Shown piece by piece: positions 6,098 to 22,614 of a DNA stretch of 32,005 bases. The position numbers were made by a program, and so were the translations under genes. Below the pieces are notes generated by a model. That model did no database searches. It was given only the letters and a program-made list of their open reading frames with translations, and was not told where the DNA came from. Source of the DNA: Actinomycetota bacterium (GTDB lineage Bacteria > Actinomycetota > JAICYB01). Within the stretch, counting starts at the first letter, position 1; every line of letters starts with the position of its first letter. The DNA is taken from the NCBI GenBank assembly GCA_035536535.1, contig DATLNZ010000088.1, positions 1-32,005 of the forward strand, read 5' to 3'.

Positions 6098-6099
6098 AG

Positions 6100-7416
6100 A
6101 TGGCACAGGAAATCCCGGACACACCCGTAGGGCGCCAGATCTCCTGGGCCCTGGACATCCTCGACGGCAAGACCAAGCCGGATCGCGACGACCTGTTGGA
6201 GCGGTTCGCCCCCGAGATGCTCCGCCAGGTCCCGGTGGACCAGCTGCTGGCCGTGCTCGAGCAGGTGGGACCGATGGTGAGGCCTTTCTCGCTCGAGCGG
6301 TTCGACAATCCGCCCACCGAGGCCCAGGCGGTCGCGGTGCTGGCGCGCGGCGACGGCGACTACTTCCGGCTCATGGCGCAGGTGGATCCGAAGCCCCCGC
6401 ACCGGATCCAGGGAATGCTCATCCAGCCTGCGCCGGACCTGCGCAAGGAGCCGGTGGCCAAGAACTGGGGTGAGGTCGAGTCGAAAGTGCGGGAGCTCGC
6501 GAAGCAGGTGAGCTTTCTGGCCGCCGAGGTCGTTTCCGGCGAGCTGGTCCCCATCCACGAAGTCGAGCCGGACACCCACCTGGCACTCGGCTCGACCTTC
6601 AAGCTCTACGTCCTCGGCGAGCTCGCGCGGCGCGTCGAGGCCGGTGAGGCCGCGTGGGACGACGAGCTGCCCATCCAAGCGAAGCTCAAGAGCATTCCGT
6701 CCGGCACGATGCAGGACGCCAAGGCCGGCACGAAGTTCCCGCTGCGCGAGTACGCGGAGAAGATGATCTCGATCAGCGACAACACGGCCACCGACCACCT
6801 GCTGCACCACCTGGGACGTGAGCGCGTGGAGGACGTCCAGGCTGCGATGGGCCATTCGGACCCGTCGCTCAACGTCCCCTTCCTGACCACCCGGGAGATG
6901 ACGGTCCTCAAGGCGGGCGCGGACCCGCGGATCGATTCGTTCATCGCTGCCGAACCCGAAGCTCGCCGGAAGATGCTTGCCGGTCCGCTTGCCAAGGCGA
7001 AGCTGCCGAAGATCCCCGACGAGATGTGGACGTCGCCGAGGCACAACGACACGGTCGAGTGGTTCGCGTCCGCCTCCGACCTGGGACGGGCGATGGCCTG
7101 GCTGCGGGACTGCATGTCGCGCCCGGCCACAAAGCCGGTGGAGAAGGTGCTGTCGCTGAACCCCGGCCTGCCTCTCGACCGCTACGCCTGGACCTACATC
7201 GGCTTCAAGGGCGGCTCGGAGCCGGGCGTGCTGAACATGACGTGGCTGCTGCGCAGGCTCGACGACAGGTGGTTCGTCCTAACTGCCACGCTCAACGACG
7301 ACGGCACCAGCGCGGCCACCTTCGAGCTCGGCGCCCTGATGCTCGCGTCCTCCGCCCTGCTGGTCATGCACCGAAAGGCGCCCGGCAAGCGCAAGCTTCT
7401 GGGCCGCCGGCGCTAA
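6100..7416 (+). CDS. Class A beta-lactamase-fold serine hydrolase with N-terminal ORF12/LpqF-type domain
   Basis: 438 residues. The start ATG follows AGGGAGG at a good distance, 2 bp after the HAD gene. Residues 1 to about 125 are a helical/alpha-beta domain like that in LpqF and ORF12 of clavulanate clusters. The catalytic half carries S165-T-F-K168 (SxxK), S226-D-N228 (SDN) and K370-G-G (KTG-like). The Glu of the class A omega loop is not evident, so true beta-lactamase activity is unlikely; an esterase or cell-wall amide role is possible. There is no signal peptide, which is odd for this fold. A hydrophobic helix (ALMLASSALLVM) lies near the basic C-terminus (KRKLLGRRR). Confidence 0.85.
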   Translation: MAQEIPDTPVGRQISWALDILDGKTKPDRDDLLERFAPEMLRQVPVDQLLAVLEQVGPMVRPFSLERFDNPPTEAQAVAVLARGDGDYFRLMAQVDPKPPHRIQGMLIQPAPDLRKEPVAKNWGEVESKVRELAKQVSFLAAEVVSGELVPIHEVEPDTHLALGSTFKLYVLGELARRVEAGEAAWDDELPIQAKLKSIPSGTMQDAKAGTKFPLREYAEKMISISDNTATDHLLHHLGRERVEDVQAAMGHSDPSLNVPFLTTREMTVLKAGADPRIDSFIAAEPEARRKMLAGPLAKAKLPKIPDEMWTSPRHNDTVEWFASASDLGRAMAWLRDCMSRPATKPVEKVLSLNPGLPLDRYAWTYIGFKGGSEPGVLNMTWLLRRLDDRWFVLTATLNDDGTSAATFELGALMLASSALLVMHRKAPGKRKLLGRRR

Positions 7417-7426
7417 AGTGGGACGC

Positions 7427-7933
7427 ATGGCCCGCTGGTGCCCGAAGTGCGGTTCGGAATACGTCGACTCCTGGACGACCTGTTCGTCCTGCAACGTCGC
7501 CCTCGTGGACGAGCCGCCGAAGCGCGCGACAAGCCGTGAGTTCGGCGTGGACGACGCCATCTTCCTGGAGCCCAGCGCCGTGAGGTCCTACGACGACCCC
7601 TTCACCACGATCTGGGAGGGCGCCACCACACAGGGCTCCGTGCTGGCCCGGCAGCTGCAGGCGGCGTCCATCCCGGTGGACATCGGCGACGCCGCCGAGC
7701 CGGGGAACATGCGGCTGGAGGTCCCCCGGTCCTACGTGAATGAGGCTTACGGCGTGCTGGACCGCGCGGGCGAGCAACCCCCGGACGTGGCCGGTGACTT
7801 CGAGGCGGAGGGCGACGACGAAGACGACCTGTACCCGTCCATCCCCCCCACCTCGGCCTCGCGGGCGCTCAAGACGGCAATCGTCGTCGTGGTGGCGCTG
7901 ATCATCGCGCTGCTGGTGATGTCGCAGTTCTGA
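7427..7933 (+). CDS. Zinc-ribbon protein with C-terminal membrane anchor (DUF2007-like middle)
   Basis: 168 residues. The N-terminus is a zinc ribbon, WCPKCGSEYVDSWTTCSSC, with two CxxC pairs. The middle (TTIWEGATTQGSVLARQLQA, then IPVDIGD and a YGVLDRAG helix) resembles the DUF2007 fold, a small ferredoxin-like domain of putative signalling proteins. An acidic linker (EAEGDDEDDLYPS) leads to one membrane helix (TAIVVVVALIIALLVM) ending three residues before the stop, so it is tail-anchored facing the cytoplasm. ATG 7427 is preferred; an in-frame GTG at 7418 adds three residues. Function unknown. The stop TGA shares a base with the ATG of the Crp/Fnr gene, suggesting linked expression. Confidence 0.75.
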   Translation: MARWCPKCGSEYVDSWTTCSSCNVALVDEPPKRATSREFGVDDAIFLEPSAVRSYDDPFTTIWEGATTQGSVLARQLQAASIPVDIGDAAEPGNMRLEVPRSYVNEAYGVLDRAGEQPPDVAGDFEAEGDDEDDLYPSIPPTSASRALKTAIVVVVALIIALLVMSQF

Positions 7934-8637
7934 TGTCCCGGCCCCCAGGCGGCGGCACCGACACCGCCGCCGCCGCCCGTACGGCCGGTTTCCTTGCCCA
8001 CCTGCAGCCCGCCGAGGAGCAGGACCTGCGCTCCCGCGGCGGCGTCCGGCGCTTTAAGCGCGGCGCGAGCCTGTTCAACGAAGGCGAGAGGTCCGACCGC
8101 GTCGTCTGCGTCCTGCAGGGCCGGGTGAAGGTGGCCTCCTACAGCGAGGACGGCCGCGAGATCGTCCTGGCCGTCCGGGGGCCGGGGGACCTGCTCGGCG
8201 AGCTGTCAGCGCTGGACGGCGAGCCGACGTCGGCGACGGTCGCCGCGCTTGACCCCGTGGAGGCCCTGGTGATGTCGGCCAGCCAGTTCAGGTCGTTCCT
8301 GGAGGACCAGCCGCGCGTGTCGCTGCTTCTGCTGGAGACGCTGAGCAGGCGGCTGCGCGACGCCGACCGCAAGCGCCTGGAGTTCGGCGCCTACGACACC
8401 GTCGGCCGCGTGGCCCGGCGACTGATCGAGCTCGCGGAGAGGTTCGGCGACGGGTCCACCGACCACGTCCGCATCGATCTTCCGCTGTCGCAGGAGGAGC
8501 TGGCGGGCTGGGTTGGGTCCTCGCGGGAGTCGGTGAGCAAGGCCCTTCGGACGCTCCGCACCCGGGGGTGGATCGAAACCGACCGCCGCCAGATCACAGT
8601 CCGGGACCTGGCCGCACTACGCTCCCGCGCGACCTGA
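7933..8637 (+). CDS. Crp/Fnr-family transcriptional regulator
   Basis: 234 residues. The cyclic-nucleotide-binding beta roll spans about 20-135 (FLAHLQPAEEQDLRSR, LFNEGERSDRVVCVLQGRVK, GDLLGELSALDGEP). A long dimer helix (LLLLETLSRRLRDADRKRL) leads to a winged helix about 170-225 with the recognition helix in LSQEELAGWVGSSRESVSKA. In the phosphate-binding cassette the Glu is present (E90 in GELSALDG), but the Arg of the usual RSA triplet is Thr (T99 in EPTSATV), so classical cAMP binding is doubtful. No N-terminal cysteines for an Fnr iron-sulfur cluster are visible. The ATG overlaps the previous stop by 1 bp. It may regulate its own operon; targets are unknown. Confidence 0.88.
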   Translation: MSRPPGGGTDTAAAARTAGFLAHLQPAEEQDLRSRGGVRRFKRGASLFNEGERSDRVVCVLQGRVKVASYSEDGREIVLAVRGPGDLLGELSALDGEPTSATVAALDPVEALVMSASQFRSFLEDQPRVSLLLLETLSRRLRDADRKRLEFGAYDTVGRVARRLIELAERFGDGSTDHVRIDLPLSQEELAGWVGSSRESVSKALRTLRTRGWIETDRRQITVRDLAALRSRAT

Positions 8638-8641
8638 TCCC

Positions 8642-8663
8642 CCGCGTCAGGCTTTCGACGCGG
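8642..8663. terminator. Possible bidirectional stem-loop between convergent genes
   Basis: A perfect 7-bp stem CCGCGTC/GACGCGG encloses an 8-nt loop at the convergent ends of the Crp/Fnr gene and the ketopantoate reductase gene, overlapping the last codons of the latter. No U tract follows on either strand, so intrinsic termination is uncertain. Only its placement argues for a terminator role. Confidence 0.3.
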
Positions 8664-9558
8664 CCAGCCTGATGCCCGCGTAGACCGCCGTGTTTACCGG
8701 CACGGGCACCCCCAGCTCGGCCCCCATGCGGACGATGGCCCCGTTCAGGTGGTCGACCTCCACGCGCTTGCCGCGCCGCAGGTCCCTGGACATCGATGAC
8801 GTGGCCTGCGGGTCGACAGTCCCCGCGTAGGCGAGCCTGTCCTCGACGAGACCGGCCGGAAGTGGAACGCCGCGAGCCCGGCCGACGGCCTCGACCTCCT
8901 CGACCACGGTGCGGAACGTGGCCCGGCCGTGGGGATCGGACAGGATCGGCCCCATCGGCTGGTCGTACAGCGTTGTCAGTCCCCCCATGGCGCAGATCAG
9001 CGCCATCTTCTCCCACAGGGCGATCCGGACGTCCTCCCGCGGCTGCGAGTCGATCCACCCTCCCGCCGACAGCCACTCGTGGACGGCCTCGGTCCGGCTC
9101 GACCAGACGCCCTCCGGCTCCCCGAAGATGATCCGCGAGTAGGTGGACACCACGCGCACGAGGCCCGGCTCCTCGAGGTCGGCCACGATCCCGGTCGTGC
9201 CCGCGAGGGCCACGTCGCCCAGCACTCCCCGGACCCGCTCCGCGGCGTCCACCCCGTTCTGCAGCGTGAGGACGATGCCCCCGCAGGACCGGACCGTCTC
9301 CGCGGCCTCCTCCAAGTCGTAGGACTTCACCGTCAAAAGGATCAGGTCCCGGTCGCCGGCCTCCGCCGCCGTGTCGGTGGCCTGCACCTTCGGGAGCGTG
9401 AAGTCCCCGCGGGCTCCGATCACCTTCAGGCCGCCGGTCCGCAGCGCCTGCAGGTTCGCACCGCGCGCCACGAAGACGACGTCGTGGCCGGCCTGCGCCA
9501 TTGCGGCGCCAAAGGCGCCCCCGACGCCTCCCGCTCCCACCACCAGGACCCTGGCCAT
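8647..9558 (-). CDS. panE: Ketopantoate reductase (2-dehydropantoate 2-reductase) family protein
   Basis: 303 residues. The Rossmann motif VLVVGAGGVGGAFGA sits at the N-terminus. LTVKSYDLEEA and TLQNGVD are typical of the family. The C-terminal helical domain carries WEKMALICAMGGLTTLYD with the conserved Lys, and SSMSRDLRRGKRVEVDHLNG ahead of the acidic/Asn active-site region. The reaction is NADPH-dependent reduction of 2-dehydropantoate to pantoate in CoA synthesis, in the cytoplasm; paralogues reduce other 2-oxo acids, so the substrate is probable rather than certain. The ATG has only a distant GAGG and may be leaderless. It is convergent with the Crp/Fnr gene and divergent from the large MoxR/VWA operon. 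Confidence 0.85.
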   Translation of the reverse strand: MARVLVVGAGGVGGAFGAAMAQAGHDVVFVARGANLQALRTGGLKVIGARGDFTLPKVQATDTAAEAGDRDLILLTVKSYDLEEAAETVRSCGGIVLTLQNGVDAAERVRGVLGDVALAGTTGIVADLEEPGLVRVVSTYSRIIFGEPEGVWSSRTEAVHEWLSAGGWIDSQPREDVRIALWEKMALICAMGGLTTLYDQPMGPILSDPHGRATFRTVVEEVEAVGRARGVPLPAGLVEDRLAYAGTVDPQATSSMSRDLRRGKRVEVDHLNGAIVRMGAELGVPVPVNTAVYAGIRLAASKA

Positions 9559-9652: not shown

Positions 9653-12097
9653 TTGCTGCGTTCTCGGGGCCCCGTCCCCGTCCTCGGTGCTCTCTCTCTC
9701 CTCAGCGCGGTATGCGTCGTCGGGTTGTCGCCGGTCGCCGCGGCTGAGACCAAGCTCACCGTGAGGGCCGCGTTCGACGGCCAGTACGTCCCCGGAACGC
9801 GCGTGCCGATGCGGGTGCGCATCGAAGCCGACCGGTTGACCAAAGGGACACTGCGAGTAGTGGTCAGCGAGGCCGGCGCCGGAATGGTGGCCGGAATCAA
9901 GGTGTCGGTCCCGGTCGAGATCCCCGGCGGAAGCGTCAAGGAGTACCTGCTCGTCGTGCCCACGAGCCGCGACGGATCCTGGTTGCCCGGTCACGTGGAG
10001 CTCGCCACGTCCTCCGGACGACAGAGGGCGCCCGTACCGACGCTGCGCCAGACCGACCAGGAGCTGGTCGGGCTGATGCCGGGGGTGCTGCAGGGGCGGC
10101 CCGTTCCCGGCCCGGCCCCCCTGGCTGTGGACGTCGGAGTCGCGAGGTTCTTCGCGCTGGACAACGCGCTGCTAGCCGCAGCCCCCGCGAGCCTCGAAAG
10201 CGTCTCGACCATCGGCATCGGACCCGACGAGCTGCGCCGGCTCTCGCCGCGACTTCGGCCCGGACTCGTGCGATGGATCGCCGACGGCGGCCGCCTGCTG
10301 GTCGATGCCGCCGCCGGCACCGACCTGCAGATGCTGCCGGCCTCCTGGAGGCCGGGACCGGCCGGACGCGCAACCGCCGGCCACGGCGAGGTCGTGCTCA
10401 CCGCAGGCGCGATGTCGGCCGGCACCTGGACCGGACTCGTCGAGCCGACCACCCGGGGGGGCAAGACGGCCGGCACCAACAGCGGCAGCGGCTACTCGGG
10501 GGGGCCGGGGTCGAGGTTCAGCTACGGGGGGTCCGGGTCCAGCTACCGGAGCAACCTGTTCTTCGAAGTGCCGGTGTCCAACGCCGTCGCCGAGGACATG
10601 GGCATCCGGTTCGCCAGGCTCCCGTGGCTGTCGGGCTTCCTGCTCGCCTACGTCCTGGCCGCCGGCCCGATCACATTCGTCGTCCTGCGCCGCAAGCGCC
10701 GCTCGGAGCTGGCTTGGATCGTCGTCCCGGCGCTTGCCGTCCTGTTCGGGGGCGCGGCCTACGCCGGAGGCAGCGACCTGCGCCACCGCCGCGAGGCGCA
10801 CCAGACCATCCTGACGACCGGCGAGGCCGGGACGATGGCCGACGTCACGGTCGGAGTGACCGGCGGCGTCGGCGGCGACAGGACAGTCCAGTTCGCGCGC
10901 GACTGGGCACCCGCCGGAGTCTGGGAGCAGTCCGGGCAGTCCCAAATCGCTCAGCCCGAGTTCACGCTCACCTCTCGGGGGCCAAGGGCGGACCTGGACC
11001 TCGGAGCCGGAGACCTCGCGATCGCCCGCGCGTCCGGACCGCTCGGGTCCGCCGACCGCACCCAGGCCGGCAGCGGTCTGGAGGTGTCGGGGCGCAGCGA
11101 GGCCGACGGCATGATCCGTGGCACCGTCCGAAACGGCACCGGTCTCACGGTTCGCGACGCCGCCGTGCTGGTCGGCAAGTCAGTGGCCAAGGTCGGGGAG
11201 ATGCGGCCGGGTGAGACGCGCAAGTGGGAGGTCACGTCCCAGCCCCGCAGCGACCACTGGTCGCTGCCGGGCCAGGACCTGTGGGCGGGCACGCAGTCAA
11301 ACCCGTACTCGCCCTACTACTCCCGCGGGCTCCCAACGCCTTCGACATCCAAGACCTCCGTCAGCTACGCGCTTTGGCAGGCGTCCACCTCACTGCCCGG
11401 TGGGGACCCCTTAGACGCGGGCCACGTCCTGGCCGTCGGCTGGACGCGCGACTTCAGGCCCGAGGTGAAGGTGGACGGCCGCACGCTGCGGCCCAAGGGG
11501 CGGACGATGATCCTCGGGCGCGCGCCCGTCCAGGCCGACGCCGCAACGATGAAGCCGCTGACGGTCGCGTGGGAGCAGGTCCGGGGGCCGGGGATCCTGG
11601 GCCCCGAGCCCGGGTGGGACGACCTGGACCCGTCGATAAGCCAGATGGTCCTGAAGTTCACGCTGCCGGCGGACTCTCCCGGCAAGCTCGTCCTGCGCTA
11701 CCCCGACACGGCCGAGTCGGTCGAGGTCTGGCAGGGCGGGGCGTGGCAGAAGCTGCGACTGCCCGTTCCGACGTCTCCGACGCCGGGGACCTACCCACTC
11801 CAGCCGAGGCGGCAGGCGCAGGTGCTGCCGCCGGGGATGACACCTTCTCCTTCTCCTTCTCCGGACCCCAACGCCCCGACCCCGGACCCCAACGCCACCA
11901 TCATTCCGACACCCACTGCCCATCCGCCCCCCCAGGTCTACGGGTACCCGGGACCCTCGTACGGACAAGGCACGTCCGGGGCGTCCTACGCCGTCGACCT
12001 TCCGCATCCGGCTGGGCGGCAGCTGTTCGTGCGGGTGCAGCAGACGCCCGGACAGCAGCACACCGGGTGGGCCTTTTCGGTCGAAGGAGCGGGCTGA
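9653..12097 (+). CDS. Large secreted/membrane-anchored protein, first gene of MoxR-VWA-ABC operon
   Basis: 814 residues from TTG 9653, chosen for the AAGGAGA site 6 nt upstream. A signal peptide (VLGALSLLSAVCVVGLSPVA then AAAETK) follows. Residues about 35-130 look beta-sandwich-like; about 150-260 contain ALDNALLAAAP and LVRWIADGGRLLVDAA, reminiscent of the DUF4350/GATase-like domain of similar operons. A Gly/Ser/Tyr-rich stretch precedes two membrane helices (about 323-342 LPWLSGFLLAYVLAAGPITF, and about 353-372). The rest is predicted extracellular and ends with a Pro-rich tail containing PSPSPSPDPNAPTPDPNA, encoded in part by short direct repeats. Its stop overlaps the ABC ATPase ATG. No catalytic motif is recognised. 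It could be the substrate-handling or envelope-facing part of the system. Confidence 0.75.
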   Translation: MLRSRGPVPVLGALSLLSAVCVVGLSPVAAAETKLTVRAAFDGQYVPGTRVPMRVRIEADRLTKGTLRVVVSEAGAGMVAGIKVSVPVEIPGGSVKEYLLVVPTSRDGSWLPGHVELATSSGRQRAPVPTLRQTDQELVGLMPGVLQGRPVPGPAPLAVDVGVARFFALDNALLAAAPASLESVSTIGIGPDELRRLSPRLRPGLVRWIADGGRLLVDAAAGTDLQMLPASWRPGPAGRATAGHGEVVLTAGAMSAGTWTGLVEPTTRGGKTAGTNSGSGYSGGPGSRFSYGGSGSSYRSNLFFEVPVSNAVAEDMGIRFARLPWLSGFLLAYVLAAGPITFVVLRRKRRSELAWIVVPALAVLFGGAAYAGGSDLRHRREAHQTILTTGEAGTMADVTVGVTGGVGGDRTVQFARDWAPAGVWEQSGQSQIAQPEFTLTSRGPRADLDLGAGDLAIARASGPLGSADRTQAGSGLEVSGRSEADGMIRGTVRNGTGLTVRDAAVLVGKSVAKVGEMRPGETRKWEVTSQPRSDHWSLPGQDLWAGTQSNPYSPYYSRGLPTPSTSKTSVSYALWQASTSLPGGDPLDAGHVLAVGWTRDFRPEVKVDGRTLRPKGRTMILGRAPVQADAATMKPLTVAWEQVRGPGILGPEPGWDDLDPSISQMVLKFTLPADSPGKLVLRYPDTAESVEVWQGGAWQKLRLPVPTSPTPGTYPLQPRRQAQVLPPGMTPSPSPSPDPNAPTPDPNATIIPTPTAHPPPQVYGYPGPSYGQGTSGASYAVDLPHPAGRQLFVRVQQTPGQQHTGWAFSVEGAG

Positions 12098-13011
12098 TGG
12101 GCGCCATGGAGGCGACGGCGGTACTGGACCACCCAGAGGCGGCGGAGATCCCCGCGGTGAGGCTGGAGTCGCTCACGAAGTCCTACGGGGGCTTGACGGC
12201 GGTCGACGACCTGACGCTGGAGGTTCCCGAAGGGTCGGTCTTCGGACTGATCGGACCAAACGGCGCCGGCAAGACCACGACGCTGGCGATCATGGCCTCG
12301 ATCCTGCTGCCGACGTCCGGAGTGGTCGAGGTCGCCGGTTACGACCCCAGCCTCTTCCCGCGGGAGGTGCGCAGGCGCATCGGTTTCATGCCGGACGTGA
12401 TGGGCGTCGTGGGCGACCTGCGGGTGGACGAGTACCTGGAGTTCTTCGCGGCGGCCTATGAGGTGCCGGCCGACTCGCGAAAGACCGTCTCGGACACTCT
12501 GCTCGAGCTCGTGGACCTCGACAGAAAGCGCGACGCGATGGTCGACTCTCTGTCGCGCGGCATGAAGCAGCGGCTGAGCCTGGCCAGGGCGCTGGTCCAC
12601 GACCCGGACATCCTGATCCTGGACGAGCCCGCCAGCGGACTGGACCCACGCGCGCGCATCGAGCTGCGGGGACTGCTGCAGGAACTTCAGAAGATCGGCA
12701 AGACGATCGTGATCAGCTCCCACATCCTCGCGGAGCTAGAGGACGTCTGCAGCGACGTGGCCATCATGGAGGCCGGACGGCTGATGACCTCCGGGTCCAC
12801 CGCGTCCATACGCAACCAGCTTCCGACCGAACGCGTCGTAAAGGTGCGCCTGGCGACCGGGGAGGAGCATGAGTTCGTCGTGGAGAGCGAAGACGAACAG
12901 GTGGAGCTTCTCCGGCAGCTGGTCGGGGAAGGGCTGCCGGTGGTGGAGTACTCGGTCGGACGGGTCCTCGAGGACGTTTTCATGCAGGTGACGAAAGGCA
13001 AGGTCCAGTGA
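12097..13011 (+). CDS. ABC-2-type transporter ATP-binding protein
   Basis: 304 residues. It starts at the ATG sharing one base with the previous TGA (TGATG), with GAAGGAG upstream. Walker A GPNGAGKT is at 53-60, the signature is SLSRGMKQRLSLARAL, Walker B is ILILDEPASGLDP and the H-loop is VISSHI. A C-terminal extension after residue about 235 contains KVRLATGEEHEFVV and VGRVLEDVFMQVTKGK, typical of ATPases that pair with ABC-2 permeases (drug, polysaccharide or Gld/Nos-type exporters). It energises the permease encoded next. Substrate unknown; the operon context points to export or membrane remodelling rather than nutrient uptake. Confidence 0.93.
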   Translation: MGAMEATAVLDHPEAAEIPAVRLESLTKSYGGLTAVDDLTLEVPEGSVFGLIGPNGAGKTTTLAIMASILLPTSGVVEVAGYDPSLFPREVRRRIGFMPDVMGVVGDLRVDEYLEFFAAAYEVPADSRKTVSDTLLELVDLDRKRDAMVDSLSRGMKQRLSLARALVHDPDILILDEPASGLDPRARIELRGLLQELQKIGKTIVISSHILAELEDVCSDVAIMEAGRLMTSGSTASIRNQLPTERVVKVRLATGEEHEFVVESEDEQVELLRQLVGEGLPVVEYSVGRVLEDVFMQVTKGKVQ

Positions 13012-13976
13012 GCGCCCAGGTCACGCAGGGGTCACGGTGGAGCCGGGTGAACCCGGTGCTCGCAAGGGAAGTGAAGGAGCGGATGCGCCGGCGCGTCACG
13101 CCCATCCTGCTCACGGTGTACCTGCTGCTGGTGGTCGGCGTCTTTAACCTGGGATACAAGGCCATAACCGAGGTGACGGGAACGTCGACGAGCTGCGTCA
13201 ACGGACGCTGCTTCAGCCAGTACAACGTCGCAGCGACCGCCGGCATCGGCCGGAGCATGTTCCAGTCCACCCTGTTCTTCATCCTTGTCCTGGTCTGCTT
13301 TATCGTCCCCGCTCTGACCTCGGGTGCCATCGCCGGCGAAAGGGAGCGCCAGACGCTGGTCCCGCTCCAGCTGACGCTGCTCAGACCGAGGTCGATCCTG
13401 CTGGGCAAGCTGTTTTCGTCCATCGCGTTTATGGTCTTCCTGATCCTGGCCACGATTCCCCTCATCGCCGTCACCTTCGTAATCGGCGGGGTGGGGCTCT
13501 TCGAGGTCGTCCTCGGAGTCGCCATGGTGATCGCCTCGGCTGTGGCGATCGGAAGCATTTCGATCATGTGCTCAACCTTCATCCGCCGCAGCCAGGGCGC
13601 GACGGTTGCCGCCTACGGGCTCGTCTTTGCGCTCACGGTGGGGACGTTCGTGCCGCTTTCGATCGTGGCAGCCGTCTCACGCTCCTCTTCGGCGATGAGG
13701 CCCACCACGGTGGCCCCCCTGGCGGCCAACCCTTTCGCCGCCACGGCCAGCGTGATCGCCAGCCCCTCAGCGAACTCCAGTCGCGGAGAGTCGCCGTTCT
13801 CGCCGCTCCAGTACCTGATGCGTGAAAGCAGGCGGTCGCCGTCCGACAACGTCTTCGATTTCGCGCTGGGGAAGGTGCCCTTCTGGCTTCTTTCCCTGAT
13901 GGCCATGGCGGGCATGTCAGCCGCGAGCATCGCGCTCGCGGCCAAGCGACTCCAGACTCCGGCGCCCAAACTGTAG
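13008..13976 (+). CDS. ABC-2-type transporter permease
   Basis: 322 residues. The GTG start overlaps the ATPase stop (GTGA). An N-terminal coupling helix region (NPVLAREVKERMRRR) precedes the first membrane helix (PILLTVYLLLVVGVFNLG). The ABC-2 hallmark GAIAGERERQTLVPLQLTLL follows the second helix, and then LLGKLFSSIAFMVFLILATI, a Gly/Val-rich helix pair, AAYGLVFALTVGTFVPLSIV and a final helix near the C-terminus, for about six segments in total. A soluble loop with one CVNGRC pair lies between helices 1 and 2, probably extracytoplasmic. It forms the membrane half of an exporter with the preceding ATPase. Confidence 0.9.
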   Translation: MSAQVTQGSRWSRVNPVLAREVKERMRRRVTPILLTVYLLLVVGVFNLGYKAITEVTGTSTSCVNGRCFSQYNVAATAGIGRSMFQSTLFFILVLVCFIVPALTSGAIAGERERQTLVPLQLTLLRPRSILLGKLFSSIAFMVFLILATIPLIAVTFVIGGVGLFEVVLGVAMVIASAVAIGSISIMCSTFIRRSQGATVAAYGLVFALTVGTFVPLSIVAAVSRSSSAMRPTTVAPLAANPFAATASVIASPSANSSRGESPFSPLQYLMRESRRSPSDNVFDFALGKVPFWLLSLMAMAGMSAASIALAAKRLQTPAPKL

Positions 13977-13978
13977 GC

Positions 13979-15630
13979 ATGGCCACCTTCGACGCGCTCC
14001 TCAAGTCGGTCCGCAGGCGGCTTCGGCTCGCGTGGGGTGCGACCACCGCGGTGCTGTGGGGTCCGGCCGCGGTCGCGGCGGCGCTCGCCCTGGCCATCGC
14101 TGCACGGATGCGGCCCCTGGCGTGGGCCGAGCCCGCGGCGCTGGCCGTCCTGGTGGTGTGCGCCGTGGGGATCCTGCTGGCGGCCGTGGCGATCCGCATC
14201 CCGGACAGGTCCACAGCCCGGGCCGCCGATCGCGGACTGCGCAGCGGCGACGTGATGGCGACCGCCCTGGAGGTGAGGTCCGCGCCCGAGGGACCGTTCA
14301 CCGCGCATGTGCTGTCCAGGGCGGAGAGGCTGGCGAAGTCCACGAGTCCGGCGGCGGCCATCCCGGTGCGGGTGGACGTCCGGCGCGCGGTCACGTCCGG
14401 GCTGCTGCTCGCCGTTGTCGCCGGCCTTCTGTTCGCGCCGAACCCACAGGACGAGGTCCGGCGCCAGGCTGCCGTCCAGCGCGCGCTGCTGGACTCCGAG
14501 GCCGAGAAGCTTCGCAAGGCCGCGCGGGAGCTGGCCAAGGCCCCCGGCGCCACGGAGGCCCAGAAAGATGTCGCCAAGGAACTGAGCGAGCTGGCCGCCG
14601 CGCTGGAGAAGGCCCCGGACGCCACCGACGGAAAGAAGGCCGTCGACGCCGCCGCCCAGCAGTTAGGCGAGAAGCTGGACCCGAACCTGCTCGCGTCCAA
14701 GGCCGCCGCCACCGGACTGGAGAAAAACCTGGGAACGCAGCCGCTGCCCGGAACCTCCGGAGGCGACGCCGCAAAGCAGCTCGAGGACTCGGCCAAGGCG
14801 CTGGAGTCGATGACCCCCGAGCAGCAGAAGCAGGCGGCGGACAGGCTTTCGTCGCTCGCGGCGACCCAGTCCGCGGGCAATCCGAAGGCCGCGGCCGACC
14901 TGACCAAGGCTGCAACTGAGCTGCGCAACGGCAACGCTCAGGCCGCCGCGGAGGCCATGCGCGGCGCTGCCAACGCCCAGAGTGGAGCGACCGGGAAGGT
15001 CGCCGACCAGGAGACGGCGGCCGGCGCAGTCGGCGCCCTGGGGGCCGTCCGCGAGAGGCTCGACTCGGGAGCCCAGGGCCAGGAGGGCCAGCAAGGACAA
15101 CAAGGCCAGCCGGGCAGCCAGGGCCAGCAGGGCCAACAGCAAGGGCAGCAAGGGCAGCAAGGGCAGCAGGGCCAGCAAGGACAACAGCAGGGCCAGCAGG
15201 GCCAGCAGGGCCAACAAGGTCAGCAGGGCAGCCAGGGACAACAGGGCGAGGGGCAACAACCCGGTCAGGGACAGCAGCCGGGTGCCGGTCAGGGCCAGGG
15301 TCAGGGACAGCAGGGTCAGGGACAGCAGGCGGGAGGCAGCCAGGGTCCGGGACAGGGCTCCGGAGGCGGGCCCCCGTCCACAGCGAAGATCTTCGACCCC
15401 CTGCTGTCGGGAAACCAGGAGGTCCAGGTCCAAGGTCAGGAGACGGGCGAGTCGTCCGGCGAACGGCTGGACACCAGCGAGGGCCCGACCGGGCGCGGCA
15501 GCGCGCAGGTCCCGCTGAGCCAGGCGCTGCCCCGGTACCGGCAGGAGGCGACGCGTGCGCTGGACTCCCTGGAGATCTCGCCGTCGGTGCGGTCGCTCGT
15601 TCGCGCCTACTTCGACAGCCTGGGCGAGAT

Positions 15631-15634
<4 letters not shown>
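13979..15634 (+). CDS. Membrane protein with coiled-coil and Gly-Gln repeat linker
   Basis: 551 residues, starting 2 bp after the permease stop. Two N-terminal membrane helices (about 18-42 and 50-72) and a third at about 136-153 (AVTSGLLLAVVAGLLFAP) are followed by an Ala/Lys/Glu-rich coiled-coil region (about 160-350). Next is a low-complexity stretch about 364-466 of GQQ triplets. The C-terminal domain (467-551) contains PLSQALPRYRQEATRALDSL and the ending SVRSLVRAYFDSLGEI, a conserved-looking tail found in analogous proteins beside MoxR genes. No enzyme motif is visible. The architecture suggests a structural or scaffolding protein spanning the envelope. The last codons overlap the MoxR TTG start. 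Confidence 0.75.
15077..15360 (+). repeat. Gly-Gln (GQQ)n coding repeat
   Basis: Imperfect tandem 9-nt units such as GGCCAGCAG, GGCCAACAG and CAAGGGCAG encode residues about 367-460 of the preceding membrane protein. Glycine falls every third residue over long runs, with single-Gln insertions (GQQQ) and occasional Pro, Ser or Glu. Synonymous CAG/CAA and GGC/GGA variation means selection is on the protein rather than recent DNA duplication alone. The tract may be prone to length change. Confidence 0.85.
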
Positions 15635-16629
<995 letters not shown>

Positions 16630-16634
16630 CGCCG

Positions 16635-17501
16635 GTGGCCGAGCCGCTGCTGGACCCGGGCCTGCTCGCCCGTCTCGAGGCGCTCCAGCTGCGCTCGCGC
16701 CACAGGCTTGCCGGACTGTTCTCCGGCGAGCACCGGTCCTCGCGACACGGCTCGTCTCCGGACTTCAGCGATTACCGGACCTACTTCCCCGGCGACGACT
16801 TCAGGCGCGTGGACTACACGCTGTACGCGCGACTGGACGTCCTGCTCGTGAAGCTGTTCGAGGCCGAGGACGAGCTGCACCTGCGGCTGCTGGTCGACAC
16901 GTCCGGGTCGATGGGCGCGCACGGCAAGCTGGCTGCGGCCAAGCGCCTCGCGGCGGCGCTGGGATTCGTCGCGCTGGTGAACCGCGACCCGGTCAGCGTC
17001 CACACCTTCCCGCTGGACAGACCCGCGCCGAGGTTCCTCGGGCGGTCGGCGTCCGGTCCGCTGTTCGCTCACCTGGAGTCGCTGACGGCCTCGGGGACCA
17101 CACCGTTCGCGGCCGCTGCGAGCAGGCTGTTGTCCCGTCCCGGCCCCCGTGGAGTGACGGTGCTTTTGTCCGACCTGCTGACCGACGAGTGGGAAGCAGG
17201 ACTGAAGCGGCTGCCGAGCCGCGGTGGGGACCTCGTCGTGGTGCACGTCCTGGCCCCCGAGGAGCTGGACCCCCCGATGGTCGGCGACCTGGACCTGCTG
17301 GACCGCGAGGACGGCACACGCGTAGAGGTCAGCCTGTCGCCCGAGACGCTCAAGCAGTTCCGGGCGGACGCCGCCGCGTGGGCCGACGGGGTCGCCACGC
17401 GCTGCCGGCGCGCAGGTGCGGCATACCTGCGCCTGGACCCCGCGGCCGACCTCGAGCCGCTGCTGCTGGGCGCCTGGCGCGAGGCGGGGGTGCTGCGGTG
17501 A
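16635..17501 (+). CDS. DUF58 domain protein (VWA-like)
   Basis: 288 residues from GTG 16635, 5 bp after the MoxR stop. The DUF58 signature SDYRTYFPGDDFRRVDYTLYA is at about 45-65, followed by a VWA-like MIDAS D88-T-S-G-S92, and later VTVLLSDLLTDEW and GGDLVVVHVLAPEELDP. It has no membrane helix, so it is probably cytoplasmic. DUF58 proteins nearly always sit beside MoxR and are thought to link the ATPase to its client. The stop overlaps a 14-codon frame that leads to the giant VWA gene. Confidence 0.92.
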   Translation: MAEPLLDPGLLARLEALQLRSRHRLAGLFSGEHRSSRHGSSPDFSDYRTYFPGDDFRRVDYTLYARLDVLLVKLFEAEDELHLRLLVDTSGSMGAHGKLAAAKRLAAALGFVALVNRDPVSVHTFPLDRPAPRFLGRSASGPLFAHLESLTASGTTPFAAAASRLLSRPGPRGVTVLLSDLLTDEWEAGLKRLPSRGGDLVVVHVLAPEELDPPMVGDLDLLDREDGTRVEVSLSPETLKQFRADAAAWADGVATRCRRAGAAYLRLDPAADLEPLLLGAWREAGVLR

Positions 17502-17542
17502 CCGCGCTCCGGGCACGTCCACGGACCGAGGCGGCGCGATGA
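17498..17542 (+). other. 14-codon open frame bridging DUF58 and triple-VWA genes
   Basis: GTG at 17498 overlaps the DUF58 TGA (GTGA), and the frame runs 14 codons (MTALRARPRTEAAR) to a TGA that overlaps the ATG of the next gene (ATGA). Both ends have the classic 4-bp coupling geometry, so terminating ribosomes could be handed across a 37-bp gap lacking a good Shine-Dalgarno. The peptide itself is unlikely to be functional. Chance cannot be excluded. Confidence 0.35.
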
Positions 17543-20500
17543 GGTTCGCCAACCCGGCGGGACTGCTCCTCGGCCTCCTGGCGATCCCGGTCGTGCTTCT
17601 GCACATGCTGCGTCCCAGGCGCAGGGCCGTGGAGGTGTCTTCCACATTCCTGTGGTCGCGAGTGCAGCGCACCGTGTCGGCCGCGGTGCCGTGGCAGCGG
17701 CTGCCGCCGACGCTGCTGCTCGCCCTTCAGCTTCTCGCCGTGGCGCTGCTGGCCCTCGGTGCCTCGCGTCCGGTGCGCGTGACGGACGCGCCGCTGTCCC
17801 CGCACACGGTTTTCATCTTCGACTCGTCGGGGTCGATGGGCGCGCTGGACGGACGCCCCGACCGCACCGCGCTCGCGCGAGCCGAGGCGCTGAGATTGCA
17901 CCGCCAGCTTCCGGCCCAGGGACTGGCCAGTGTCGTCATCGCCTCGAGCCGTCCGCAGGTGGTGCTGTCGACGAGCCCGGATGCCTCGTCGTTCCGGGAC
18001 GCCGTGGACGCCATCAAGCCGACGGCAGGGGCCGCGGACTTCGCCACCGCCTTCACGCTCGCCGAGAGCCTGGAGACTCCCGAGGCGCCCGTCGGGTTCG
18101 TGCTCCTGTCCGACGGCGGCCTGACCGAAGACCAGCGCCGCCTGATACCGCCCGGGACGAAGTGGGTGAAGACGGGGTCCAAGCGCAACAACCTGGCGCT
18201 CACGCGGCTGACCGTCGAACCGCGCGGGGCCGGCATCCACGCGCGCGTCACCCTTCGCAACACCGGCACCCGGGACGCTCGGCGGACGCTGCGCCTGTCC
18301 GTGGACGGAGCCCAGGCCGTGGACACGTTCGTCGTCGTCCGGCCGGGAGCGACGATCGAGCGCGAGCTGGACCTCCCGCAGGGCGACCGGGTCCGCGCGT
18401 CGCTGACGGGATCGGACCTGCTGCGCTCCGACGACAGCGCCTACGCCGTAGCCGGACGCCGTCCGGCCGTCCGGGTCATGCACGCCGGACCGGACAACCC
18501 TTACCTCGACCGCCTTCTGGCCGCGATCCCGGGCGTCCAGGTGGAACGCTCGCCGGCGTCGCGTCCGGCCCCCGGATTCGACCTGGCGATCTACGACCGC
18601 GTCGAGGTCCCGCGCGACCCGGCGGCCCCGGTGTGGGCGATTGCGCCACCGGGGGGCATGGACGGAATCCACGTGGCCGGCGAGGTGGAGCAGCCTGCGG
18701 TGACGCTCGTGGAGACCGGCGACGACCTGCTCGAGGGTCTGGACCTGTCCGGGGTCGGGATCGCCAAGGCGCAGCGTCTGGTCCCGGAAGGCGACGAAGT
18801 GCTCGTGGGGGCCGAGGGGGCGCCGCTTCTCGTCCGGGGGATCAGGTCCGGACGTCCCGTCGTGTACCTGGCGTTCGCGCTGGACCAGAGCAACCTTCCG
18901 CTGCAGATCGCGTTTCCCGTGCTCGGCGACCGGCTCGTCACCGCACTGACGGGTGCTGCGCCACCGCCGGCCGACCTGCGGTCCGGACAGCCCCTGCCGA
19001 TAGCCCAGACGGGACGCGAGCTTGTGGTGTCCGGACCCGGACAGCCGTCCATCGACCTGCCACCGGGGGCGGCTCCCCCGCTGGCCTCAGCCCCCGGGTT
19101 CTGGACCGTGAAGGAGAAGACGGCGGACGGCGCACCGCGGGGCACCGAGCGGGTGCTGGCCGTGAACGCCGACCCCGCCGAGTCGTCCATCGCGCCGGCG
19201 GACTCTCTCCCGCAGCCCGCCAGGGCGCGCGACCGCGGACAGCGCCGTCCCGCCGGCGAGCTTCCCCTCCTGCCGTGGGTCGCCGGGATCCTGGCCGTCG
19301 TCATGGGGGCCGAGCTGTGGCTCAGCCGCCGTTCGGCCGGCGTGTCCGCCCGTCAGTGGCGGTGGGCGCTGGGGGTCCGGGCGCTGATCGCGCTCCTGCT
19401 CATCGGATCGGTCCTGGGCTTTGCGGTCCCGCGCACCGGCAAGCACGTGGCGACGGTGTTTTTGGTGGACGCGTCGGACTCCATGGGTCAGGACGGAGTC
19501 GCCGCGGCCGTGGACTGGGTGCAGGACGCGCTGCGCCGCCAGACTCCCGAGTCGCGCGCGGGCGTCGCGTTTTTCGGCGGCGACGCGCGACTGGAGCACG
19601 TCGTGCAGCCGGAGCTGGAGCTGCAGGGGCAGCACGTGAAGGTGGAGGCATCGCAGACCGACCTGGCCGAGGCGCTTCGTCTGGCCGAAGCCGTGCTTCC
19701 GTCCGACGCGCGCCGCCGGGTGGTGGTCGTCTCCGACGGCCGGCCCACCGAGGGCGACGCCGCAACGGAGGCCACGCGGCTGCGGGAGTCGGGGATCGCG
19801 GTGGACGTCCACCCCATACGGCGGGGCGGGGGCGCCGACGTCGCGGTCGCCCGCGTCGACACGCCGAGCGTGGCGCGGGAAGGCGACGCCTACTCGGTGC
19901 GCGTGACGCTGGCCTCCACGGTCCAAACGGCCGTGCGCGTCGAGCTGGAGCGCGACGGAAAGACGGTCGACGCGCGGGCGGTGGACGTCCAGCCCGGAGA
20001 ATCGGTCGTCGAGTTCCCGCAGTCGGCCGGGCCCCCGGGGTTGATCCGGTACGTCGTGCGGCTGACGGCCCAGTCCGACGCGATCAAGGAAAACGACATC
20101 GGCTTCGCCGCGGTCCGCGTCGAGGGACCGGCGCGCGTGCTGCTGGCCGAGGGACGTCCGGGGGCCGCGGCACCGCTCGCAGGCGCGCTGGGCGCCGGAG
20201 GCATCCGCACCGAGACCGTCGCGGCGGGGGCGCTCCCGGCGCTGGACGTGCTGTCGACGTTCTCCGCCATTGCGCTGGTGGACGTGGACCGCGCGTCGCT
20301 GTCGGACAACCAGGTCGCGTCCCTGGGATCGGCCACGCGCGACCTCGGACGAGGGCTGGTGGCCATCGCCGGCGACCAGTCGTTCGCGCTGGGCGGCTAC
20401 CTCGACAGCGATCTCGAGAAGCTGCTGCCAATCGTCAGCGACATCAAGGACCCGAAAAAGCGCCAGCCGGTCGCGCAGATCCTGGTCATCGACTCCAGCG

Positions 20501-22080
20501 GCTCGATGTCCCAGGGCGGACAGCAGGGGGCTCAGGCGATCGACCTCGCGAAGGCGGCCGCTGCGCAGGCGCTCAAGACACTGAAGCCGACCGACGAGGT
20601 CGGGATCATCGCCTTCAACAGCCAGCCCCGCTGGCTGCTCCAGCTGCAGCGCAACCCCGGCGAGGACGCGACGGTCTCCGCCCTGCAGGGACTTCGCGCC
20701 GACGGCGGGACGGCACTGCTGGCGCCGCTGCAACAGGCAGGCGAGGCGCTCAAGGCCAGCAAGGCCTCCCGCAAGCACGTGATCATGCTCAGCGACGGTC
20801 AGACCGGGGAGCCGGGGCTGCGCGAAGAGGCGGCGCGCATCGCCAAGACCGGGGTCACCGTGTCGTCCATCGGAATCGGGTCCGGGTTCGACCCCGGGCA
20901 GATGCAGGGGATCGCCGAGGGCGGCAAGGGACGGTTCTACGCGGCGACCGACCCGGCGCAGGTCCCCAAGCTGCTCACCCAGGAGACCGTGCTCGCGTCG
21001 CGCAACTTCGTCAACGAGGGCAGGTTCCTGCCGCGCGTGGTGTCGCGCGACGATCCCGTCCGCGACCTCACGGGCTCGCCGCCGCTGCTCGGTTACCAGG
21101 CGATAACGGCCAAGCCGGCGGCGTCCACCCTGCTGGACATTGGCGAGGACCAGGATCCACTGCTGGCGACGTGGCGGGTCGGACTCGGCCGCGCCACCGC
21201 CTGGACCAGCGACGCAGGCGCCAGGTGGGCCCAGCTGTGGGCGGCGTGGGGGGGCTTCCCCGCGTTCTGGTCGGCCGTGGTCAAGGACACGTTCCCGCTC
21301 GGCGGAGCGTCCGGAGCAGGGGTTCGCGCCACCGTCGAGCAGGGACGGCTGCGCGTGACGGTGGAGCGCGAGGAGCCTTGGCCGGACGGAGCCGTCGCGA
21401 CGGCGCGCGTGTCGGCCCCCGCACTGGACGGCACCCCCATGGCCCTGGAGCGGACGTCGCCGACGACGTTTTCAGGCGATGCTCCGGCGACGCAGACAGG
21501 CAGCTACTCGGTGGGAGTGGAGGTGACGTCCGGGGACACGACGGTGTTCTCGTCGGTGGCTATCGCCAACCGGTCCTACTCGCCGGAGTACCGTCCGGAG
21601 GACCCCGACCCCGGCCTGCTGGAACGAGTCTCGAAGCTGTCCGGGGGCCGCGGGTCCATCCGCGCGTCGCAGGCCTTCCAGCCGCAGGGACTCCGTCCGG
21701 GCCGCGGGTCGATCCCGCTGTCCGGGTGGTTTTTGTTGCTCGCCGCCCTGCTATGGCCGCTGGACGTCGCACTGCGCCGGCTCGTGATCGGACAGGCGGT
21801 CCCCCTGGCCGTGTCGGCCACCCGCCGCAGCGCCGACAGCATCCGCTCCCGCCTGCGCCGGCTGTCCCCGCCCTCGCTCAGCCGCGGGGAGACGGCACCC
21901 GCGAGGGGGCCGCGTCCGAGTCCCGTGTCTCTGGGTCCCGAGGCCGTGCAGCCTTCGCAGCCCGAGCCCCCGCAGCACCCGGGGGCCGAGCCCCAGCCAC
22001 AGGACGCACGGACCGAGACCCTGCAGCGGCTGCTGGACAGAAAGCGCCGGATCAGCGGCGGAGGCCCGCCGGACGACTAA
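17539..22080 (+). CDS. Giant membrane protein with three VWA domains (BatA-like fusion)
   Basis: 1,513 residues from ATG 17539, where the BatA-type start MRFANPAGLLLGLLAIPVVL begins. Membrane helices lie at about 6-25 and 55-75. VWA1 has MIDAS D95-S-S-G-S99 and LSDGG. A beta-rich region follows to about 560, then helices at about 573-590 and 613-632. VWA2 has D644-A-S-D-S648 and SDGRP. A beta-domain precedes a GATase-like Rossmann region (about 866-975). VWA3 has D985-S-S-G-S989, GGTAL and D1086 in LSDGQ. A last helix (about 1391-1413) and a Pro-rich cytoplasmic tail close it. It looks like a BatA-like protein fused to a separate VWA/GATase membrane protein, genes that are usually independent. 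All MIDAS motifs appear intact, implying metal-dependent partner binding under MoxR control. It ends 6 bp from the convergent apt gene. Confidence 0.88.
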   Translation: MRFANPAGLLLGLLAIPVVLLHMLRPRRRAVEVSSTFLWSRVQRTVSAAVPWQRLPPTLLLALQLLAVALLALGASRPVRVTDAPLSPHTVFIFDSSGSMGALDGRPDRTALARAEALRLHRQLPAQGLASVVIASSRPQVVLSTSPDASSFRDAVDAIKPTAGAADFATAFTLAESLETPEAPVGFVLLSDGGLTEDQRRLIPPGTKWVKTGSKRNNLALTRLTVEPRGAGIHARVTLRNTGTRDARRTLRLSVDGAQAVDTFVVVRPGATIERELDLPQGDRVRASLTGSDLLRSDDSAYAVAGRRPAVRVMHAGPDNPYLDRLLAAIPGVQVERSPASRPAPGFDLAIYDRVEVPRDPAAPVWAIAPPGGMDGIHVAGEVEQPAVTLVETGDDLLEGLDLSGVGIAKAQRLVPEGDEVLVGAEGAPLLVRGIRSGRPVVYLAFALDQSNLPLQIAFPVLGDRLVTALTGAAPPPADLRSGQPLPIAQTGRELVVSGPGQPSIDLPPGAAPPLASAPGFWTVKEKTADGAPRGTERVLAVNADPAESSIAPADSLPQPARARDRGQRRPAGELPLLPWVAGILAVVMGAELWLSRRSAGVSARQWRWALGVRALIALLLIGSVLGFAVPRTGKHVATVFLVDASDSMGQDGVAAAVDWVQDALRRQTPESRAGVAFFGGDARLEHVVQPELELQGQHVKVEASQTDLAEALRLAEAVLPSDARRRVVVVSDGRPTEGDAATEATRLRESGIAVDVHPIRRGGGADVAVARVDTPSVAREGDAYSVRVTLASTVQTAVRVELERDGKTVDARAVDVQPGESVVEFPQSAGPPGLIRYVVRLTAQSDAIKENDIGFAAVRVEGPARVLLAEGRPGAAAPLAGALGAGGIRTETVAAGALPALDVLSTFSAIALVDVDRASLSDNQVASLGSATRDLGRGLVAIAGDQSFALGGYLDSDLEKLLPIVSDIKDPKKRQPVAQILVIDSSGSMSQGGQQGAQAIDLAKAAAAQALKTLKPTDEVGIIAFNSQPRWLLQLQRNPGEDATVSALQGLRADGGTALLAPLQQAGEALKASKASRKHVIMLSDGQTGEPGLREEAARIAKTGVTVSSIGIGSGFDPGQMQGIAEGGKGRFYAATDPAQVPKLLTQETVLASRNFVNEGRFLPRVVSRDDPVRDLTGSPPLLGYQAITAKPAASTLLDIGEDQDPLLATWRVGLGRATAWTSDAGARWAQLWAAWGGFPAFWSAVVKDTFPLGGASGAGVRATVEQGRLRVTVEREEPWPDGAVATARVSAPALDGTPMALERTSPTTFSGDAPATQTGSYSVGVEVTSGDTTVFSSVAIANRSYSPEYRPEDPDPGLLERVSKLSGGRGSIRASQAFQPQGLRPGRGSIPLSGWFLLLAALLWPLDVALRRLVIGQAVPLAVSATRRSADSIRSRLRRLSPPSLSRGETAPARGPRPSPVSLGPEAVQPSQPEPPQHPGAEPQPQDARTETLQRLLDRKRRISGGGPPDD

Positions 22081-22137
22081 GGGCGCTCAGTACGTGACGA
22101 GCGAGTAGGGCTCGACTCCCGTCAGCTTCGAGCGCCC
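22081..22137. terminator. Possible bidirectional terminator at convergent operon ends
   Basis: An 8-bp perfect inverted repeat, GGGCGCTC (22081-22088) and GAGCGCCC (22130-22137), encloses 41 nt holding a smaller GAGT/ACTC hairpin, exactly where the triple-VWA gene and apt converge. It overlaps the end of apt and lacks a strong U tract on the plus side. Its role as terminator is tentative. Confidence 0.3.
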
Positions 22138-22614
22138 GTTCAAAAAGCCCAGCTCGATGATGAACCCGGCCCCGACGACCTCGGCCCCCAGCTGGGCGAC
22201 CAGGCTCAGCGCCGCGGCCGCGGTGCCCCCCGTGGCGAGGACGTCGTCAATGAGCAGCACCCGGTCGTCCGGACCCAGGGCGTCACGGTGAAGCTCGAGG
22301 TTCTCCGTCCCGTACTCCAGTTCGTAGGCGATGGACTCCGTCTGCCACGGAAGCTTGCCCTTCTTGCGGGCCGGGACAAACCCCGCGCGGAGCCGGTATG
22401 CCACGGGGGCGCCGAGGATAAAGCCGCGCGCCTCGATTCCTACGACGCGGGTGGGACGCATCGGCTCGAAACGCTCCACCAATGCGTCCACGATGGAAGC
22501 GAAGGCTTCACCGTCGGACAGCACTGGGGTCAGGTCCTTGAAGACGATCCCCGGCTTCGGGAAGTCCACCACGTCGCGGATCAAAGCCCGGACGCGATCG
22601 GCGCACTCGCTCAC
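22087..22614 (-). CDS. apt: Adenine phosphoribosyltransferase
   Basis: 175 residues, the normal Apt length. The family start DFPKPGIVFKDLTPVLSD is at 17-34, GIEARGFILGAPVA at 59-72, the KKGKLPW segment at 84-90, and the PRPP-binding loop VLLIDDVLATGGT at 119-131. The reaction is adenine + PRPP to AMP + pyrophosphate (purine salvage, cytoplasm). The GTG start lies 4 bp after the secF stop, in the usual actinobacterial order yajC-secD-secF-apt. The (p)ppGpp synthetase gene relA that often follows apt is absent; instead the MoxR/VWA operon converges here. Confidence 0.95.
   Translation of the reverse strand: MSECADRVRALIRDVVDFPKPGIVFKDLTPVLSDGEAFASIVDALVERFEPMRPTRVVGIEARGFILGAPVAYRLRAGFVPARKKGKLPWQTESIAYELEYGTENLELHRDALGPDDRVLLIDDVLATGGTAAAALSLVAQLGAEVVGAGFIIELGFLNGRSKLTGVEPYSLVTY

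What the first reader, a model, noticed from the sequence alone, without database searches (positions are those of the whole stretch)
9653..22080. Seven-gene operon joining an ABC-2 exporter, a Gly-Gln linker protein and a MoxR/DUF58/triple-VWA module
Seen: seven same-strand genes with 1-4 bp overlaps or gaps of a few bases through most of 12.4 kb, so probably one transcript. Known: MoxR + DUF58 + VWA proteins form activation modules, and ABC-2 exporters with a GATase-like auxiliary protein occur in gliding-type systems. Inference: here both are combined with a large signal-peptide protein and a membrane scaffold carrying a collagen-like Gly-Gln tract, suggesting a membrane complex in which MoxR remodels VWA proteins to control export or surface assembly. 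I know of no named system with this exact set.
Basis: partly seen in the sequence, partly recalled or inferred. Interest (0 to 1): 0.75.

Follow-up and report, generated by a model that had tools for sequence, protein, structure and literature searches.

The report
Conserved exporter plus MoxR envelope operon
Seven adjacent genes encode a membrane exporter together with a chaperone-driven set of surface-facing binding proteins, and the same genes in the same order recur across at least three bacterial phyla, which points to a widespread envelope machine that seems never to have been studied as a unit.

Summary
Seven tightly packed same-strand genes run from 9653 to 22080: a signal-peptide GldG-like protein, an ABC ATPase, an ABC-2 permease, a Gly-Gln membrane protein, MoxR, DUF58, and a 1513-aa fusion carrying three VWA domains. 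The grouping is not chance. The same order, usually with the last protein split in two, recurs in Actinomycetota, Bacillota and Chloroflexota. The exporter triad and the GQ/MoxR module co-occur in genomes even where they lie apart (75 of 77 Chloroflexota genomes; not corrected for kinship). The operon's MoxR is a clade distinct from the genome's five paralogs.

The Gly-Gln tract is a variable disordered linker, not collagen-like. All three VWA domains are predicted to be extracytoplasmic, so MoxR can touch only DUF58 directly.

Best explanation: an envelope export/assembly machine. An ABC-2 exporter with a GldG-like partner is built or gated by a cytoplasmic MoxR–DUF58 chaperone and an extracytoplasmic VWA scaffold.

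The closest precedents are the archaeal DUF4350–MoxR–vWA secretion system predicted by Makarova et al. 2015 and the Bat operon. This is a new variant of a known kind. No substrate or phenotype is known.

The parts
9653..12097 (+). SP: signal-peptide membrane protein (814 aa). Model: beta-sandwich, GATase/DUF4350-like domain, TM hairpin (res 323-375), further beta-sandwiches. GldG-like exporter partner.
   Evidence: orthologs hit DUF4350/DUF7408; model; TM scan
12097..13011 (+). ABC-2 type ATPase (304 aa)
   Evidence: PF00005 E=2e-26; best NCBIfam relatives DrrA and GldA, below cut-off
13008..13976 (+). ABC-2 permease (322 aa)
   Evidence: PF12679 E=4e-12
13979..15634 (+). GQ protein (551 aa): 3 TM, helical region, disordered Gly/Gln tract, conserved C-terminal helical hairpin; no curated family
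15098..15508 (+). codons of the disordered Gly/Gln-rich linker (res 374-510)
   Evidence: pLDDT under 50; composition varies in orthologs
15512..15631 (+). codons of the conserved C-terminal hairpin (PY..V...Y...A...L...P....VR.YF..L)
15631..16629 (+). MoxR AAA+ ATPase (332 aa) with Walker A GVPGLGKT, Walker B LADEINR, sensor 1 ATQNP
   Evidence: distinct clade
16635..17501 (+). DUF58 protein (288 aa), soluble, VWA-like with MIDAS DTSGS
   Evidence: (E=8e-29); no TM
17539..22080 (+). VWA fusion (1513 aa): BatA-N + VWA1 (part 7A) fused to TM + VWA2 + GATase-like + VWA3 + TM + tail (part 7B); separate genes in most relatives
8647..9555 (-). flanking divergent ketopantoate reductase (start approximate); not part of the system
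22087..22614 (-). flanking convergent apt-like phosphoribosyltransferase; marks the operon's 3' end

Best explanation
The operon encodes one envelope machine made of two functional modules. Module 1 (SP, ABC ATPase, permease) is an ABC-2 exporter whose GldG-like partner carries Ig-like and GATase-like domains outside the membrane. Module 2 (GQ protein, MoxR, DUF58, VWA proteins) is a chaperone-driven scaffold. Cytoplasmic MoxR hexamers work with cytoplasmic DUF58, as NorQ does with NorD. Outside, three MIDAS-bearing VWA domains and the long flexible tether of the GQ protein, ending in a conserved helical hairpin, hold or gate the exporter and its cargo. MoxR-driven remodelling of the membrane parts from the inside would assemble, reset or license the exporter. 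Shown: the genes, domains, intact motifs, conserved order, genome-level co-occurrence and distinct MoxR clade. Predicted: topology and folds. Inferred: physical complex, direction of transport, chaperone action on the exporter. Unknown: substrate.
For: The same 7-8 gene order occurs in Actinomycetota families f1, f9, f23, f26, f38, f44 and f69, in Acidimicrobiia, Bacillota and Chloroflexota. Every SP-bearing Actinomycetota contig long enough to tell keeps it, except one permuted case. SP and GQ co-occur in 15 genomes, against 17 with SP and 16 with GQ, in Actinomycetota, and in 75 of 77 strong GQ genomes in Chloroflexota even when unlinked. GQ sits directly before MoxR-DUF58-7A also where the exporter is elsewhere. 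The operon MoxRs form a 100/100 clade apart from five own-genome paralogs. MoxR catalytic motifs, DUF58 MIDAS and most VWA MIDAS motifs are intact. SP orthologs match DUF4350/DUF7408, and DUF4350 proteins resemble GldG by HHpred (PMC5898192). MoxR-VWA pairs are ATP-driven remodellers (PMC13036017). A Bat VWA faces the periplasm experimentally (PMC5700661).
Against: No experiment, expression data or substrate. Direction of transport is assumed from ABC-2 type. Topology rests on hydropathy. Some VWA-A proteins (for example L029, L132) lack a clear DxSxS. The exporter triad often occurs without the module adjacent, so coupling is not obligatory in one operon. The Fisher tests ignore kinship of genomes. 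Several source genomes are MAGs. No co-folding was possible.
Confidence: 0.45

Rival explanations
1. It is a Bat/Cmd-type envelope-integrity or oxidative-stress complex. MoxR, DUF58 and BatA-like proteins maintain the envelope, and the ABC exporter is a separate transporter that shares a promoter.
For: BatA-N domain and MoxR-DUF58-VWA order as in bat operons (PMC5700661, which also reports that R. leguminosarum cmd mutants have envelope defects). The exporter triad can be far from the module in Chloroflexota.
Against: Conserved linkage in three phyla and co-occurrence even when unlinked. No BatD or TPR-type BatC gene in the set, and the GQ family occupies a fixed place.
Confidence: 0.25
2. It is a dedicated protein-secretion system, the bacterial counterpart of the archaeal DUF4350-MoxR-vWA system predicted by Makarova et al., exporting surface proteins.
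For: Shared DUF4350-like, MoxR and vWA parts with extracytoplasmic Ig-like domains.
Against: The archaeal description does not mention an ABC exporter or DUF58. ABC-2 transporters more often move lipids, polysaccharides or small molecules. No conserved cargo gene lies next to the operon.
Confidence: 0.2
3. It matures a membrane metalloprotein, MoxR-DUF58 acting as a cofactor-insertion chaperone like NorQD or CoxDE.
For: MoxR-VWA pairs insert metals in known cases (PMC13036017).
Against: No metalloenzyme is encoded in or conserved beside the operon.
Confidence: 0.05
4. It is an anti-phage or conflict system of the MoxR-vWA ternary kind.
For: MoxR-vWA ternary conflict systems exist (PMC7159879).
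Against: No PADLOC match except generic ABC ATPases. No effector domains. Conserved, non-hypervariable parts.
Confidence: 0.03

Closest known systems
Predicted archaeal secretion complex of arCOG01314 (DUF4350), MoxR and vWA (Makarova, Galperin, Koonin 2015, PMC5898192)
   Same: Membrane-anchored GldG-like DUF4350 protein, MoxR/COG0714 ATPase, VWA proteins, Ig-like extracytoplasmic domains
   Different: The account read describes no ABC ATPase or permease, no DUF58 and no GQ tether; it is archaeal and includes S-layer-like proteins
Bat (Bacteroides aerotolerance) operon of Bacteroides, Leptospira and Borrelia
   Same: MoxR, DUF58, BatA-N plus VWA proteins in one operon; Borrelia BB0173 VWA faces the periplasm
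   Different: Bat has BatD and TPR proteins and no ABC exporter; here a GATase-like/VWA protein, a GQ protein and an exporter instead
GldA-GldF-GldG ABC transporter of Bacteroidota gliding
   Same: ABC-2 ATPase and permease with a large GATase-like extracytoplasmic partner
   Different: ATPase and permease score far below GldA/GldF equivalog cut-offs; no gld/T9SS genes tested or seen beside it; no MoxR module in Gld
NorQ-NorD and RavA-ViaA MoxR/VWA chaperone pairs
   Same: MoxR AAA+ with a cytoplasmic MIDAS-bearing VWA partner acting on membrane complexes
   Different: Partner here is DUF58; client unknown; three further VWA domains predicted outside the cell

Membership tests
Bat operon | MoxR, DUF58 and BatA-N/VWA genes together | tested here: met
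Bat operon | BatD and TPR (BatC/BatE) genes in the operon | tested here: not met
   no such domains in the seven genes or recurring in flanks
Gld ABC transporter | ATPase and permease above GldA/GldF equivalog cut-offs | tested here: not met
   GldA 199.8 bits against cut-off 402.6; GldF 19.8 against 288.5
Gld ABC transporter | GldG-like GATase partner | tested here: inconclusive
   orthologs hit DUF4350/DUF7408, which resembles GldG per PMC5898192; no direct GldG match
Makarova archaeal DUF4350-MoxR-vWA system | DUF4350-family protein with MoxR and vWA genes in one operon | tested here: met
   DUF4350 match is in orthologs, not in the window's own protein
Makarova archaeal DUF4350-MoxR-vWA system | Ig-like/S-layer membrane proteins of arCOG02884 type | not tested
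   no archaeal profiles were compared
MoxR/VWA chaperone pair | catalytic MoxR plus cytoplasmic VWA partner with MIDAS | tested here: met
   motifs in 18 loci; DUF58 has no TM
MoxR/VWA chaperone pair | physical MoxR-VWA complex with ATP-driven remodelling | not testable with these tools
   needs biochemistry or co-folding
Collagen-like protein | long Gly-X-Y repeat conserved as period 3 | tested here: not met
   period-3 Gly fraction 0.40 in the window tract; orthologs GQ, GS, GN, GD
MoxR-vWA ternary conflict systems / PADLOC defence | match to defence models | tested here: not met
   only generic ABC ATPase hits

The most novel reading that the evidence does not exclude
A previously undescribed envelope export or surface-assembly machine, present in at least three phyla, in which a cytoplasmic MoxR-DUF58 motor controls an ABC-2 exporter through a membrane tether (the uncharacterised GQ family) and extracytoplasmic VWA domains.
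Probability: 0.35. Interest if true: 0.78.

Novelty: new variant of a known kind. Interest (0 to 1): 0.58.

Why it matters
MoxR proteins are among the commonest AAA+ ATPases in prokaryotes, yet few clients are known. A fixed gene set that ties a dedicated MoxR-DUF58 pair to an ABC-2 exporter and a tether family across phyla makes the client question directly testable. It also gives two unnamed protein families (GQ, and this SP branch of DUF4350/DUF7408) a defined context, and extends an archaeal secretion prediction to bacteria with an energy-coupling transporter attached.

Tried and rejected
Chance adjacency: rejected by cross-phylum synteny and co-occurrence. Collagen-like tract: rejected. 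GldAF membership: below cut-offs. Defence system: no PADLOC support. DUF4175/TIGR02302 (another GQ-rich membrane family recalled from memory): no Pfam or NCBIfam match for GQ members. A ninth conserved gene: flank clustering recurred only within one family, mostly shadow ORFs. Viral homologs of the VWA fusion: none. Foldseek of the SP model against PDB gave only generic beta-sandwich matches with low TM-scores; the GQ model matched nothing at E<=0.001. First MoxR tree lacked the paralogs and was redone. Literature search for MoxR with DUF58, VWA and ABC transporter found only an unrelated mycobacterial review.

Full report
Observation. The window holds seven + strand genes from 9653 to 22080: SP (814 aa), ABC ATPase (304), ABC-2 permease (322), GQ protein (551), MoxR (332), DUF58 (288) and a 1513-aa VWA fusion. 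Junctions are 1-4 bp overlaps or gaps of 2-5 bp, except 37 bp before the last gene. The operon is bounded by a divergent ketopantoate reductase and a convergent apt-like gene. SP and GQ match nothing on their own. The genome is a 2.6 Mb, 205-contig assembly with five further MoxR genes. The nearest relatives of the VWA fusion are Actinomycetota/Acidimicrobiia MAGs.

Conservation. Two genomes of another family in the phylum carry the whole set in the same order, with the last protein as two genes (7A, 7B) and a GQ tract in the fourth protein. A scan of 84,980 species genomes with the 7B part found the full order in Acidimicrobiia, Bacillota and Chloroflexia MAGs, and 7B alone in many Anaerolineae. 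An SP profile hit 17 of 397 Actinomycetota genomes. The fetched regions show SP-ABC-PERM-GQ-MoxR-DUF58-7A-7B up to the contig ends, in several families. In the Bacillota sample 39 of 250 genomes have SP, and 7 of 10 inspected carry the full order up to the contig end. In the Chloroflexota sample 81 of 251 have SP; three of ten inspected carry the full set, and most of the others show only the exporter triad. There GQ-MoxR-DUF58-7A often sits elsewhere in the same genome.

Two modules that go together. A GQ profile without its tract hit 94 of 251 Chloroflexota and 16 of 397 Actinomycetota genomes. At the stricter level 75 of 77 GQ genomes in Chloroflexota also have SP (Fisher p about 5e-54), of which 47 are linked within 12 kb. 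In Actinomycetota 15 genomes have both (p about 4e-24). These tests treat genomes as independent, so the p-values are too small, but the unlinked co-occurrence is hard to explain without a shared function.

Dedicated MoxR. The operon MoxRs from three phyla, with the similar loci of Chloroflexota and Opitutia, form one side of a 100/100 branch. The window genome's five paralogs lie on the other side. Three of the paralog clusters are MoxR-DUF58-transglutaminase clusters, a different kind. Catalytic motifs are intact.

What the unknown proteins are. SP orthologs hit DUF4350 (3 of 9) and DUF7408 (2 of 9). The model shows a beta-sandwich, an alpha/beta domain, a TM hairpin and more beta-sandwiches (mean pLDDT 67). 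GQ has no curated family and no solved fold relative. Its model shows TM helices, a confident helical region, a disordered tract (374-510) and a C-terminal hairpin. Across more than 30 orthologs the tract changes from GQ to GS, GN, GD or GQQ, while the hairpin motif stays. So the tract most likely works as a flexible tether and is not a collagen.

Topology and mechanism. By hydropathy and positive charges, GQ has three TM with its tether outside, and the VWA fusion has five TM with all three VWA domains outside. A sixth weak hydrophobic peak at 896-914 lies within the GATase-like region and was not counted. MoxR and DUF58 are soluble. The experimental precedent is Borrelia BB0173 (PMC5700661). 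MoxR can therefore work directly only with DUF58 and cytoplasmic loops. By analogy with NorQD (PMC13036017), the MoxR-DUF58 pair would remodel a membrane client, most simply the exporter or the GQ/VWA scaffold. This step is inference.

Prior art. Makarova et al. 2015 predicted an archaeal secretion complex of DUF4350, MoxR and vWA proteins (PMC5898192). Bat operons share MoxR-DUF58-BatA. Neither description has the ABC exporter plus GQ set. The searches covered open-access papers only, so a subscription-journal description cannot be excluded.

Verdict. A real, widespread, apparently unnamed operon: a new variant of a known kind. Its existence as a functional unit is strongly supported; the mechanism is moderately supported; the substrate is unknown.

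Noticed in passing
window 5515-7416: Beta-lactamase-like protein with an ORF_12_N domain (clavulanate ORF12-like), upstream on the + strand.
   Followed up: no
window 7933-8637; L015 1818-2381: Crp/Fnr-type regulator upstream of the operon, also present upstream in the same-family genome G001; possible regulator.
   Followed up: partly
L019, L020, L021 (own genome contigs C36, C130, C138): Separate MoxR-DUF58-transglutaminase (TgpA-like) clusters, some beside branched-chain-type ABC transporters.
   Followed up: partly
G010 and G051, about 5.4 kb upstream of the operon: Small secreted protein made of QGISWVGAQ-type repeats, in both genomes.
   Followed up: no
L043 and L097; L081: Rubrobacter MAG operon MoxR groups 100/100 with a Chloroflexia one, and a contig labelled Pleurocapsa minor carries a Chloroflexota-like 7A-7B: misbinning or transfer.
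   Followed up: no
L249 (G202 contig C169): Permuted arrangement: ABC-PERM-GQ-MoxR-DUF58-7A-7B followed by SP and a second ABC gene.
   Followed up: partly
L028 4326-5783: GQ reading frame appears frameshifted in its middle (MAG error or decay).
   Followed up: no
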